From the NCBI GenBank assembly GCA_000697665.1, contig KL197709.1, positions 2,603,599 through 2,667,598 on the forward strand: a stretch of DNA of 64,000 nucleotides, read 5' to 3'. The stretch is from Jaapia argillacea MUCL 33604 (lineage: Eukaryota > Basidiomycota > Agaricomycetes > Jaapiales > Jaapiaceae). The position numbers were made by a program, and so were the translations under genes. Of this stretch, positions 18,767 through 23,440 are shown in pieces; within the stretch, counting starts at the first letter, position 1; each line of letters begins with the position of its first letter. Below the pieces are notes generated by a model that was given only the letters and a program-made list of their open reading frames with translations, was not told where the DNA came from and did not search any database.

Positions 18767-21700
18767 ATGTCTCGACACAGACTTGTACGAAACATGAATA
18801 TCAATGGTAAGTACATCGTTGATCCACCGTTTGACCGTTGCTTACTTCGGACTGGTGGACAGACGAACTAGACGACGACGCTCTATCTGATGGTGGGGAA
18901 GAACAACTCTCGCCAGAGCAAGAAGGTCAGGGGGTGCTTCTCTCGTGGAAATTGCATTTACTGACGATTCCCGATGTTAGAATACATGGCTAATGGCTTA
19001 GAACATGTTAGGGTGGCCTTGGGTAGTGAAGAGGAATCTGGTTTAGACGACACAGTCATCAAGGAGACATTATGGCATTACTACTTCGATATTGAGAAGA
19101 GCGTTGACTGGTTGGTCGGTAAGTCATATATTCAAATGTCTCGACTGCCCTCGTGGCTGATTTCCTTGTCAGAGGAGCAAGATAGGAGGAAGGCGGCACT
19201 GGAACGAAGAGGTAAGCATGAACGACTTGACTTTTATCCCCTTCATTTCAGTACTCCCATCGTCCCTTTTGTAACCATACCTATTCTTCCCGAATTCTGC
19301 GGAATGAAGGTACATGTTCGGTCTGCTGGACTCCGCCCACGATCTTCGCGACACACTAATTGATCCTCATATTCCTTATAGATTACGGCGGAAGCAGTGT
19401 CGTTCCATCCTTCCCCGTCGGCCCAGATGGCGAGTTTTCCAGTGATGGGAGTGCATCCCCCAACCTTTTGAATCGGCTCAACCTTCCCCTGATGACCTTG
19501 GGTCAGGATGCGCCCTATGGAGAAGAGTATTCTGAAGCTGCCTCGACGCCACGGATTGGATACAATCGTCTCAGTACTATTACTGAGCGAACAGAACGGA
19601 CGGAGTTCACAGAGAGTTCTGGAACCTGGACACCGGGACGTGCGTCTGCTGCACCCCAGCAGTTACGCCCGACGTCGATCCTAACGTCAACGACGGATTA
19701 TGGTCAAGAAATTGGTATGATTCATTTCCGACCGTCAAACTTCTAGTCGTTGCTGACTATCGTATACAGAGTCGAGGATGATTGTCAACCCCAATGATAT
19801 CCCTCCTTCACCGTCATTATCCGCTCTCGCTCGCCTATCTATGATGGAGCCTGCGCCTTCATTACCAAGGTCGGAGTCTCGCAGTCCTCCCTCCACGCCA
19901 CCGCGCTCTCCACCACCACCTCTTCCCCCCATGGAAGCTATCCCCGATATCCCCGACTATGTTTCCAAGTCGAGTCGATTACCCAAAATCGCTGATCGGG
20001 TAGCACCGCGACCTCTCTTAAAGGCCTCAGAAAGCTCCGACCGCTCGAGCACGGTCAAGAAATCCAAATTGTCAGCCCTCGCGAGTTCAAGAGCAAGCTC
20101 AGCAAGTCTCAGTACTCGGAGTTCACGAATGACTGACTTCGATTCCGCTACTGTGGCCACTTACCCTGCCCTACGACCCTCTCCCGCGTCGCAGCTCTCC
20201 TTAGCTCCTTCCACGAGCACATCGGCTTCATCTCACGTCCGAAAGGCGATTCAAGCCGCGATGGAGTTTGAAAACCTTGACAGAGCAGGCTCTCGAACGC
20301 CAACTGCACGCTCTGAAGCGTCGACGGTAAAGGTGGATCGTGTACCGGCCCCGCCCTCCTCAACGGGACAAAGTCAGCACCGTTCCAGTCGGGAATCCAT
20401 GAAGACAATATCTGAAACGTCTCCACCTACGAAACAACCATCAAAACTGGCACTCCTTGCTCAGGCCAAGGCGCAGCAGAATGGCAGCTATAGTCCGACC
20501 TCAAAATCGGCGACACGTTCCCAGTCTCCTGGTAGCCAGCTCCATCAGCCCCGCACGAAGTATCTTACGCCCATAGCCAATGGCGCAAGTGCAACTACAG
20601 CAATCACTACTCAATATCAGTCGTTGAATAACCTCATTCCTCCCAAGAGATCGGCGCTTCCTCCCTCGTATCCACCTACCGACTCCAATCCACCCTCATC
20701 AAAGTCCGTCGGCCGTGAGCGGCAATCGCAGGAGCCAAAGCAGTCAAAGTTGGCGATGAAGGCCAAGAAACAGAAGCAGATTACTGAAACTCCCATTGTC
20801 GAGGAGCCCGAAGAGATCCCTCCCGAGCTACCCATATTCATGAGCAAGCCCACTCGTTCTCGTGCGTCGCCATCGGTTTTCGCTTCACTCCTAACCGAAG
20901 ATCAGTCTCTAACGCACTGCGAAGATACGAGCGCAGAGGCGGCAGAGAGGAGAGAAAGGAAGGGGAAGCAGAAGGCTCGTTCATCGAGTATACAAGATGA
21001 CGAGACGAGTACATCCTCGCTTACCTCCGACCGGCGGAACCGCACGCTCCCCCCATTGCCCCCTCTGTCGTCACCTAACGGTTTCGCCTTCGATTCCCCA
21101 AGTCCCGACGACGTGGTGCTAAACGCTAGAAAGGGGACTTCCCTCGCCAAAGTTCGATCCGTACCTGGCCCTTCACTCACCTCCGCCTCGTCGCCTTCTC
21201 CTTCACGTCACCCTTCTCGCGTTACTTCTTCTCTTTCGTCTCTTCATTCTATTTCTCAAAGGACTTGATTTTTTAATATTCCTGTTGTGACTGATTCTTG
21301 TCGTTGTTCTCCTTGTAATCAATAGCTGCCAAACAACGAGAGAAGGCGTTGAAGATGACCTCCCAGAAGAACTCGGTTAATTCCCCCTCTCGTCCGTCGT
21401 CGGCCGCAACGTCTCGGGCCACTTCTCCTGTACCTATCAAAACACCCAAAAAGGGTGCCGCAAGCACTTCTAAACCTGCTGCCGGCGCATCAACCCCCGC
21501 TCGAACTTCGGGGGCTACAGATCAGAGTCAGCTTGATCTTTCTGGACTTAATTTAAATAACAAGAATGAAGACATCGCTGTTGTGGATGAAGAACCGCCC
21601 AGGGTGGCTATCGCAAGGGAGAAGTTAATTGAACAGGTGAAGAAGGCCCTCGATGCTGAAGCTGCAAAGGACAGGCTGGCTGTTAGCCTGGTCGTCATTG

Positions 21701-23440
21701 GTGCGGACAACCAGTCTCGTCTTGCTTATGGGGCATACTGAGGCAGGATTCAAGGGCACGTTGATGCTGGCAAATCCACACTTATGGGACGATTATTGTA
21801 CGAGCTTGGCAGAGTGGATGAGAAAAAGCGAGCCGCGAATGAAAGGGCAAGCAGCAAGATTGGCAAGAGTAGCTTTAGCTGGGCTTGGCAACTCGATGGC
21901 ACTGCCGAAGAGCGAGAGAGGTGAGCCAAGTGTTTGCTTGCCGTGTGGAATCTCTGGTCTCAACTACGCGCTTGGACTATAGAGGCATAACGATGGACAT
22001 TGCAATGCAATCTTTGACAACACCACGAAGGCAGATCACAATTCTTGACGCTCCAGGTCACAAGGATTTCATACCGAACATGATTTCAGGGGCATCGCAG
22101 GCAGATTGTGCCCTACTTGTCGTCGATGCGGCTACGGGAGAGTTCGAAGCAGGCTTCGAAAGGGGAGGACAGACTCGAGAACATCTGCTTCTCGTAAGAA
22201 GCCTCGGCGTTGGCCAAGTGGTCGTCGCAATCAACAAATTAGATCAAGTCAGCACTGGAATTGTCTTCTGGCTTATTCCTCTTCTGATCTACTTGCTAGG
22301 TGCAATGGGAGAAGGACAGGTACAACGAAATATGCGACCTATTACGCCCGTTTCTGCTTCAATCCGGTTTCCAGCCTTCGAAGACCAAGTTCGTGCCAGT
22401 CGGTGCGATGTCAGGGGTCAATCTAGTGAATCGTGACGGGACGGATGCTTCTCTCCTGTCCAAGTGGTACAAAGGACCGACTTTGGTAGATCTCCTCGGT
22501 TTGTTGCCTAGTTCTCTCGCTCGGCGCTTTACTCAGACCTTCATCTATCTTCCAGATCGGCTTGAACCTCCCATCCGGGACATAACGTCACCGTTGCGGT
22601 TCCCTATATCCAACGTCTTCAAAGGAACAGGCTCTGGTATTGGCGTTTCTGGCCGAGTTTGTGGGGGAGTCATTCAAGTTGGGGAGCGCCTTCGAATGCT
22701 TCCCGGGGATGAAACATGCGTTGTGAAATGTCGGGATTTCAATTTGTCCATCCTCGATTTTCTGACCCCTCCTCCACCAGCAATTGACCTAGAGGACGCG
22801 AACGTGCAATGGGCAGCAGATGGGTCCAATGTGACGCTCTACCTCACATCTGTGGATCCTGTTCATCTCAGCGTTGGGACTGTGTTATGTCCTCCTGAAC
22901 ATCTCGTCCCTCTCGCTACGGTGTTCAGTGCGCGGGTCTTGGTGTTCGATATCCAAGTACCTATCACTGCAGGGACATCTGTACGTTGGGTGAACCCGCT
23001 CTCAAAGTCCTGTTGCTGATACGACACTTCAGGTTGAGCTGTTCCACCAATCTCAGAACATCCCAGCATCGATTTCCAAGCTCGTTTCGTCATTGGATCG
23101 TGCTACTGGCAATGTTCTGAAGCAGAACCCCCGGTGTGTCTTCATCCTTCATCCAGATCGCTGGCTGGTACTTAAACTACGCACTAGAGTGTTGACCAAA
23201 GCACTTGCTGCCGAGGTTCAAATTACCCTACGCAGTGCCAACTACAGCACCGGTGCTGCATCCACTACTAAAGCCCGCCCAATTCCTCTGGAGACTTTCT
23301 CCACAAACAAGGAAATGGGGAGGATCTTGATTCGTCGGGGTGGAGAGACCATCGCCGCAGGTTTATTTCCCTCCACATGATCACTCGTATTAGACTGACC
23401 AGAGGTCATAACAGGAATCGTATTGGCGATCATCGCCTGA
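18767..23440 (+). CDS. HBS1: HBS1 ribosome-rescue GTPase (HBS1/SKI7 bifunctional locus, long-spliced form)
   Basis: HBS1 works with Dom34/Pelota to split stalled ribosomes. The N-terminus is canonical: [13 protein letters not shown] joined to [14 protein letters not shown]. An HBS1_N domain follows ([15 protein letters not shown] and [20 protein letters not shown], about 18,980-19,115). In the HBS1 form, the exon ending at 19,714 (Gly-Gln-Glu-Ile) must skip to the acceptor at 21,325. The join gives [12 protein letters not shown] in frame, removing 1,611 nt. The GTPase domain has G1 GHVDAGKS across an intron (about 21,695-21,775), G2-region ERGITMDIA (about 21,985), G3 DAPGHKDF (about 22,049), G4 NKLD (about 22,235) and a G5-like GAMSG (about 22,410). 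EF-Tu-like domains 2 and 3 follow to [12 protein letters not shown] at 23,438-23,440. All GTP-binding motifs look intact. Confidence 0.9.
19770..21268 (+). CDS. SKI7: Alternative SKI7-like terminal exon of the HBS1 locus
   Basis: This 1.5 kb open exon lies inside the long HBS1 intron. Splicing from the same donor (19,714/19,715) to the acceptor at 19,769 removes 55 nt and gives [15 protein letters not shown] in frame. It runs about 500 residues and stops at 21,266-21,268, before the GTPase exons, so the product would be HBS1_N plus a Ser/Pro-rich tail without GTPase. In other fungi and in animals a single HBS1/SKI7 gene is known to yield SKI7, the cytoplasmic exosome-Ski complex bridge, from such an exon. 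Seen here are three short SKL-Ala/Ser-rich motifs (about 20,056-20,095, 20,434-20,475, 20,740-20,785) and SPSVFASLL (about 20,867-20,893), which resembles the short exosome-binding motif of SKI7-like proteins as I recall it. Coding is strongly supported; the SKI7 role is inferred from position. Confidence 0.75.

What the first reader, a model, noticed from the sequence alone, without database searches (positions are those of the whole stretch)
18767..23440. One locus encodes both HBS1 and a SKI7-like protein by alternative 3' splice-site choice
A 1.5 kb open exon (19,770-21,268) ending in its own stop sits between the HBS1_N exons and the GTPase exons. The same donor after 19,714 splices in frame either to 19,770 (giving Glu-Ser-Arg) or to 21,326 (giving Ala-Ala-Lys), since both acceptors complete the codon begun by one G. 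This is seen directly. A single HBS1/SKI7 gene with alternative splicing is established for other fungi and animals. That the short form bridges the exosome and Ski complex here is inference.
Basis: partly seen in the sequence, partly recalled or inferred. Interest (0 to 1): 0.75.

Follow-up and report, generated by a model that had tools for sequence, protein, structure and literature searches.

The report
Mushroom HBS1/SKI7 dual-product gene
One fungal gene appears to be cut and joined in two ways, giving either a ribosome-rescue enzyme (HBS1) or a docking protein (SKI7) that links two RNA-destruction machines; this arrangement is already known from other fungi, animals and plants, and here it belongs to a wood-decay fungus and its mushroom relatives.

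Summary
Donor 19714 reads in frame into 19770 (703 aa, stop at 21268) or into 21326 (803 aa). The 803-aa form is HBS1. The 703-aa form carries both hallmark SKI7 exosome-docking motifs and no GTPase. The exon is conserved in mushroom-forming fungi: 33 of 33 metagenome frames that I treat as unspliced keep both motifs and stop 13-47 residues after the second. The own genome shows only this copy. The deposited Jaapia argillacea protein matches the window exactly and uses the 19714-19770 junction. The distal (HBS1) junction rests on frame, gene count and published precedent; none of the proteins held shows it (0 of 37). Basidiomycete HBS1/SKI7 splicing was reported in 2013 with the SKI7 mechanism left open; this favours the GTPase-less form. 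New member of a known kind. Unexpected: the deposited model and 26 others, 27 of 132 annotated models, omit a short in-frame piece (63 nt here) that removes the main exosome-docking motif. Real optional intron or repeated annotation error: RNA data must decide.

The parts
18767..19714 (+). Five shared exons (18767-18806, 18863-18925, 18981-19118, 19173-19211, 19382-19714), HBS1_N (UBA-like) domain; deposited model starts at ATG 18677
   Evidence: splice sites, frame; PF08938, E 1.3e-18; exact match of deposited protein
19715..19769 (+). Short intron (55 nt) leading to the SKI7 exon; CTGAC branch-like site 13 nt before the acceptor
   Evidence: used in deposited protein P0001
19770..21268 (+). 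SKI7-specific exon, 499 residues counting the split first codon, then its own TGA
   Evidence: homologues
20063..20092 (+). Conserved [10 protein letters not shown], predicted helix; function unknown, candidate docking motif
   Evidence: invariant or nearly invariant columns; helix 99-108, low confidence
20441..20470 (+). Conserved [10 protein letters not shown], predicted helix; second SKL motif
   Evidence: helix 225-236, low confidence
20555..20626 (+). Conserved [24 protein letters not shown] block
   Evidence: T262, P267, N270, G271, T275, T276, A277, T279, T280 invariant in both alignments
20744..20761 (+). Conserved SKLAMK; third SKL motif
   Evidence: helix 326-332, low confidence
20861..20893 (+). 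SKI7-like exosome-docking motif [11 protein letters not shown]
   Evidence: matches the metazoan consensus in PMC6143672 at 8 of 10 positions by my count; motif present in 33 of 33 ORFs treated as unspliced
20862..20924 (+). Candidate in-frame optional intron (exitron), 63 nt: C|GTGCGT ... CTAAC ... GAAG|AT; removed in the deposited protein, deleting the docking motif
   Evidence: motif missing in 27 of 132 annotated models, this one included
21080..21118 (+). Patch 4-like motif [13 protein letters not shown] (Patch 4 contacts exosome cap protein Csl4 in yeast)
   Evidence: consensus; PSPDD present in 33 of 33 ORFs treated as unspliced
19715..21325 (+). Long alternative intron (1611 nt) that skips the SKI7 exon to give HBS1
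   Evidence: both acceptors in frame; the other introns are 42-170 nt; junction not seen in any protein held
21326..23440 (+). HBS1-specific exons (21326-21700, 21755-21920, 21983-22247, 22300-22980, 23033-23133, 23188-23360, 23403-23440): linker, EF-Tu-type GTPase, C-terminal domain
   Evidence: PF00009 E 1.7e-47, PF22594 E 5.6e-21; best PDB match HBS1L 5lzw, E 3.6e-119

Best explanation
This is the single HBS1/SKI7 gene of the wood-decay fungus Jaapia argillacea. One 5' splice site (19714) is joined to one of two 3' splice sites. The near one (19770) includes a long exon that ends in its own stop and makes SKI7: the shared N-terminal domain of a ubiquitin-binding type, then a mostly disordered scaffold ending in two exosome-docking motifs ([11 protein letters not shown] for the exosome ring, [13 protein letters not shown] for the CSL4 cap), with no GTPase. 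The far one (21326) skips that exon and makes HBS1, the GTPase that works with Pelota/Dom34 on stalled ribosomes. [quoted passage not shown] Shown here: sequence, frames, motifs, conservation, one copy found in the genome, proximal junction in the deposited protein. Inferred: use of the distal junction in RNA, the two biochemical functions, and the 3' end of the SKI7 mRNA.
For: Frames and splice sites. HBS1 domains; best solved structures are HBS1L (402 bits) and 3mca (298), ahead of EF1A (up to 264) and eRF3 (up to 222), though S. cerevisiae HBS1 (255) falls just below the best EF1A. Both SKI7 motifs match consensuses published for plants and animals; both occur in order in 0 of 20,000 residue shuffles. 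A profile of 22 sequences aligns to human SKI7 (9g8m) at the same two motifs in the same order, but only at E 1.4. 375 homologues at E <= 0.001 among 7976 scored (120 listed). 33 of 33 metagenome ORFs treated as unspliced keep both motifs and stop 13-47 aa after PSPDD. Own genome: the window's own copy is the only match to the SKI7 exon and to HBS1_N; other matches to the HBS1 GTPase exon are 30-46% identical. Two places match DSHCT (Ski2/Mtr4-type) and two eRF1_2 (eRF1/Pelota-type). Precedent: PMC3597508.
Against: No RNA data. Of 37 held proteins with an HBS1 linker or GTPase, none joins the shared exons directly to the linker (my reading); annotation gives SKI7-only, fused or GTPase-only models. 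In the window the fused route is open in frame from donors at 20715, 20862 and 21207. The profile of 33 exon-level sequences finds no PDB chain at E <= 10 and the one that reaches human SKI7 is not significant, so kinship to human SKI7 rests on short motifs, gene position and architecture. The Arg of RxxxFxxxL sits two residues earlier than in human (Ser at the human Arg position). The 33 ORFs were found with queries that include both motifs, so frames lacking them were less likely to be listed, and some of the 33 are near-duplicates.
Confidence: 0.85

Rival explanations
1. The SKI7 exon is not terminal: it is normally spliced near its end (e.g. donor 21207) to 21326, giving one long fused SKI7-GTPase protein as in Lachancea kluyveri, with HBS1 as the skipped form.
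For: 24 of 137 annotated proteins with PSPDD have more than 200 aa after it, and those printed run on into the linker and GTPase; the 21207-21326 join is open in the window (1282 aa).
Against: 109 of 137 annotated models end within 60 aa of PSPDD and 33 of 33 ORFs treated as unspliced have a genomic stop there. Fused models join at differing places, as expected from predictors forced to put every exon into one mRNA (inference). Donor 21207 (CAC|GTCACC) is weak. Marshall 2013 says that evidence suggests the annotated intron 4 of C. neoformans and intron 2 of U. maydis are not true introns, which would leave a truncated SKI7.
Confidence: 0.1
2. Two separate transcription units: a SKI7 gene ending at 21268 and a downstream GTPase gene with its own promoter and start (e.g. 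ATG 21354), so no alternative splicing.
For: P0125 (Pleurotus pulmonarius) is annotated as a GTPase-only protein starting with Met at the place equivalent to ATG 21354; Candida albicans uses alternative promoters at this gene; no clean HBS1 junction in the proteins held.
Against: The distal acceptor fits donor 19714 in phase exactly. Linkers of annotated proteins begin at the equivalent place, and only 1 of the 23 printed (P0051, also Pleurotus) has a Met just after it. ESTs in two other basidiomycetes show skipping that gives an HBS1-like protein.
Confidence: 0.05

Closest known systems
Basidiomycete SKI7/HBS1 of Cryptococcus neoformans and Ustilago maydis (Marshall et al. 2013, PMC3597508; sections 6, 8, 9, 13 and 26 read; its supplementary Text S1 not read)
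   Same: Single gene; skipping an internal region gives HBS1; a truncated GTPase-less SKI7 was proposed from ESTs, RNA sequencing and similarity.
   Different: There two skipped exons (C. neoformans) or one (U. maydis), and the authors left the SKI7 mechanism open. Here one long open exon with its own stop, found in that form in many Agaricomycetes.
Human HBS1L / HBS1L3 (SKI7) (PMC11540850, passages; PMC6143672, passages)
   Same: Shared N-terminal domain; SKI7 has an alternative C-terminal part without GTPase; motif 1 then Patch 4 near the C-terminus.
   Different: Sequence between the N-domain and the motifs gives no match by profile search; the mushroom family has its own conserved blocks (three SKL motifs, YLTPIANG...ATTAITT).
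Plant HBS1/SKI7 loci (PMC6143672, passages and Discussion)
   Same: A short alternative segment carrying the SKI7-like motif is included or excluded.
   Different: Plant SKI7 keeps the GTPase; the plant segment is a cassette exon, not an in-exon optional intron.
Lachancea kluyveri and other ascomycete SKI7/HBS1 (PMC3597508, sections 6 and 8)
   Same: One donor, two alternative 3' splice sites.
   Different: In L. kluyveri the long form is a 96-kDa protein that continues into the shared C-terminal part; here the SKI7 exon ends in a stop.

Membership tests
HBS1 | HBS1_N domain plus EF-Tu-type GTPase and C-terminal beta domain, closest to HBS1 rather than EF1A or eRF3 | tested here: met
   (HBS1L 402 bits, EF1A up to 264 bits, eRF3 up to 222 bits)
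HBS1 | Binds Pelota/Dom34 and splits stalled ribosomes | not testable with these tools
   none; two eRF1_2 matches in the genome, not assigned further
SKI7 | SKI7-like motif (metazoan consensus A+PShFAahL) | tested here: met
   [10 protein letters not shown] at 20864-20893, 8 of 10 positions by my count; conserved in relatives
SKI7 | Strict human RxxxFxxxL spacing | tested here: not met
   F and L kept, Ser at the Arg position, Arg two residues earlier. [quoted passage not shown]
SKI7 | Patch 4-like motif (plants IaPFKFDaPSPDDhV) | tested here: met
   [13 protein letters not shown] at 21080-21118
SKI7 | Encoded by the HBS1 locus as an alternative form | tested here: met
   by frame, gene count and deposited model; RNA not tested
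SKI7 | Binds exosome and Ski complex | not testable with these tools
   none
Exitron (coding optional intron; the term is recalled) | In-frame, stop-free intron inside a coding exon with GT-branch-AG signals | tested here: met
Exitron (coding optional intron; the term is recalled) | Both spliced and unspliced mRNAs occur | not testable with these tools
   only mixed gene models (27 of 132 without the motif)

The most novel reading that the evidence does not exclude
The gene makes three regulated products: within the SKI7 exon a conserved in-frame optional intron (exitron, 20862-20924 here) removes exactly the exosome-docking motif and keeps the rest, so splicing can switch SKI7 between an exosome-recruiting form and a form that would bind its other partners but not the exosome. 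This would be a splice-level brake on cytoplasmic RNA decay across mushroom-forming fungi, comparable to the plant cassette exon that carries the same motif.
Probability: 0.2. Interest if true: 0.6.

Novelty: new member of a known kind. Interest (0 to 1): 0.4.

Why it matters
Marshall 2013 stated that how basidiomycetes make SKI7 was not entirely clear. The stop just after Patch 4 in 33 of 33 frames treated as unspliced favours an animal-like, GTPase-less SKI7 in Agaricomycetes, and suggests that fused 1,000-1,300-aa models are annotation compromises (inference). In the proteins held here none shows the HBS1 junction (0 of 37), and 27 of 132 models lack the exosome-docking motif, so users of these annotations can be misled about both products. 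If the optional intron is real, it is a new control point on cytoplasmic RNA decay that could be tested with RNA-seq.

Tried and rejected
Looking for relatives' DNA: IMG/VR viral contigs gave no relative. The genome-contig collection was not searched (prokaryotes only) and metagenome contigs was capped at 0, so no relative's splice-site DNA was read; this is the main gap.

Solved-structure searches: the window exon alone found nothing credible; alignment A3 contained GTPase proteins and matched EF-type GTPases trivially; alignment A4 found nothing at E <= 10; only A1 reached human SKI7, at E 1.4. The AlphaFold model of the exon is low confidence (mean pLDDT 48), so no fold search was run. A plasmid search with the HBS1 linker DNA found nothing.

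Rejected: chance ORF; a second SKI7 or HBS1 gene (GTP_EFTU matches elsewhere were not assigned one by one); loss of the docking motif in some species as true evolutionary loss (close relatives, and an ORF treated as unspliced with nearly identical flanks, keep it).

Counts that were replaced: a first class count by regular expression; missing motif by a looser expression, 33 of 141, replaced by a scored count, 27 of 132, because the expressions missed variants. In one search, 18 of 150 annotated proteins were dropped for lacking ATTAITT followed by PSPDD. An alignment-based count gave 26 of 116 against 0 of 13.

Against a real exitron: Arg codon CGT, which supplies the donor, is 14 of 92 Arg codons in the SKI7 exon plus HBS1 coding sequence, about 15%, not far from the 20% of models without the motif; and exon 5 holds another in-frame intron-like signature at 19640-19708. 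The signature patterns were chosen after seeing the deposited intron.
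Full report
Observation. Five shared exons end at 19714; the donor at 19715 joins in frame to 19770 or to 21326, because both acceptors complete a codon begun by G. The first route gives 703 aa ending at 21268, the second 803 aa ending at 23440. The 503-codon open run exceeds all of 1000 Markov simulations (maximum 358).

Identity. The deposited protein JAAARDRAFT_243711 of Jaapia argillacea MUCL 33604 (P0001) equals the window translation residue for residue when it starts at 18677 and when 20862-20924 is removed. 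So the window is that fungus or identical to it here, and the public model uses the proximal junction.

HBS1 form. Pfam finds HBS1_N, GTP_EFTU and GTP-eEF1A_C above cut-off. The best solved structures are HBS1L (5lzw, 402 bits) and 3mca (298 bits), ahead of EF1A (up to 264) and eRF3 (up to 222); S. cerevisiae HBS1 (255) falls just below the best EF1A.

SKI7 form. The long exon has no Pfam domain but carries [11 protein letters not shown] and [13 protein letters not shown]. Brunkard and Baker (PMC6143672, passages read) describe SKI7 by a SKI7-like motif (metazoan A+PShFAahL) and a Patch 4-like motif (plants IaPFKFDaPSPDDhV). By my count the window matches the first at 8 of 10 positions, and it matches the F.FD.PSPDDVV core of the second. 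Both in order occurred in 0 of 20,000 shuffles of the exon's residues. In human SKI7, residues 555-572 bind at RRP43-MTR3, 602-616 at CSL4, and 617-632 reach the SKI2 helicase (PMC11540850, passages); equating the first two with the motifs follows and is partly inference. A profile of 22 sequences aligns to human SKI7 (9g8m chain E) at the same two motifs in the same order, at E 1.4, which is not significant; a profile of 33 exon-level sequences found no PDB chain. Overall sequence kinship to human SKI7 is therefore not demonstrated; motif, position and architecture are.

Conservation. One search gave 36 proteins, one search gave 101 (only the 7992 candidates sharing most words scored), one search gave 375 with 120 listed; 183 distinct proteins were held. 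I treated 33 of them (sources lgn, jgi or ena only) as unspliced open frames from metagenome DNA; that is inferred from the source labels. All 33 keep both motifs and stop 13-47 aa after PSPDD, median 31. They were found with queries holding both motifs, and some are near-duplicates, so this is not an unbiased sample. Of 137 annotated proteins with PSPDD, 109 end within 60 aa, 4 within 61-200 and 24 later. The fused annotated models join to the HBS1 linker at differing points. That the relatives are Agaricomycetes is from the species names in the listings and recall.

Gene number. In the own genome the window's copy is the only match to the SKI7 exon and to HBS1_N; the HBS1 GTPase exon matches itself and three places at 30-46% identity. 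Two places match DSHCT and two match eRF1_2, as expected if Ski2/Mtr4 and Pelota/eRF1 are there; they were not assigned further.

What is not shown. No RNA evidence was available. Of 37 held proteins with an HBS1 linker or GTPase (183 examined), none joins the shared exons directly to the HBS1 linker, by my reading. This counts against the distal junction, or shows only that pipelines keep one model per locus. Marshall et al. 2013 (PMC3597508; [quoted passage not shown] In the window the fused route is open from donors at 20715, 20862 and 21207, so it is unlikely but not excluded.

Unexpected result. The deposited protein lacks 63 nt, 20862-20924 (C|GTGCGT...CTAAC-12 nt-GAAG|AT), and this deletes the exosome-docking motif. 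Of 132 annotated models with the surrounding blocks (this one included), 27 lack the motif (scores up to 6.3) and 105 have it (21.8 or more), with nothing between; 0 of 33 ORFs treated as unspliced lack it. By my reading, in 25 of 27 the gap begins at or just after the Arg codon before A-x-P-S (P0043 and P0066 are unclear), and 18 of 27 show His at the join, as expected for C|GT...AG|AY. Close pairs with and without this piece have similar or identical flanks: Termitomyces P0064 and P0048, Athelia P0045 and P0037, Lactarius P0096 and P0077, and Suillus P0071 against the ORF P0159. In an earlier alignment this block was missing in 26 of 116 annotated models; other SKI7-exon blocks were missing in 0 to 7. 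Under synonymous recoding, a full in-frame intron signature in this peptide arises in 0.7% of 20,000 trials, and anywhere in the exon in 4.3% of 2,000; the patterns were chosen after the intron was seen. Against it: Arg codon CGT is about 15% of Arg codons here, close to the 20% of models affected; exon 5 has another such signature; and no relative's DNA could be read. It is either a real optional intron or a repeated prediction error, and I lean to error. Searches for exitron with SKI7 and for exitron with basidiomycet returned no papers in the held library.

Other conserved blocks. Three SKL motifs ([26 protein letters not shown]) and a YLTPIANG...ATTAITT block are nearly invariant; helices are predicted at the SKL motifs with low confidence. 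They are candidate Ski-complex docking sites (inference). The shared N-domain probably binds ubiquitin on stalled ribosomes (inference): the mouse domain binds ubiquitin in vitro (PMC13232801, abstract and passages).

Verdict. A real, conserved HBS1/SKI7 dual-product gene of a known kind. In the papers I found I saw no comparable survey of the terminal SKI7 exon in Agaricomycetes.

Noticed in passing
window 20862-20924: The deposited Jaapia protein and 26 other annotated models omit a short in-frame segment holding the exosome-docking motif, mostly starting at the same codon; 33 of 33 metagenome ORFs treated as unspliced contain it.
   Followed up: partly
window 20063-20092, 20441-20470, 20744-20761 and 20555-20626: Three nearly invariant SKL motifs and a YLTPIANG...ATTAITT block of unknown function in the SKI7 exon.
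   Followed up: partly
P0129 (Rhodotorula), P0130 and P0131 (Kwoniella), P0127 (Clathrus): Annotated as one protein with HBS1_N, SKI7 motif-like remnants and GTPase together; their true splicing may differ from that of most Agaricomycetes here.
   Followed up: no
window 17965-18372, minus strand: Upstream divergent exon matches the single-strand DNA-binding protein family (PF00436, E 4.3e-6), so HBS1/SKI7 may share a short divergent promoter region with an SSB-like gene.
   Followed up: no
window 21269-21325: A 57-nt T-rich stretch between the SKI7 stop and the HBS1 acceptor must serve as acceptor tract for HBS1 and may hold the SKI7 3' end; the SKI7 poly(A) site is unknown.
   Followed up: no
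window 19640-19708: A second in-frame intron-like signature (69 nt) inside shared exon 5; probably chance.
   Followed up: no
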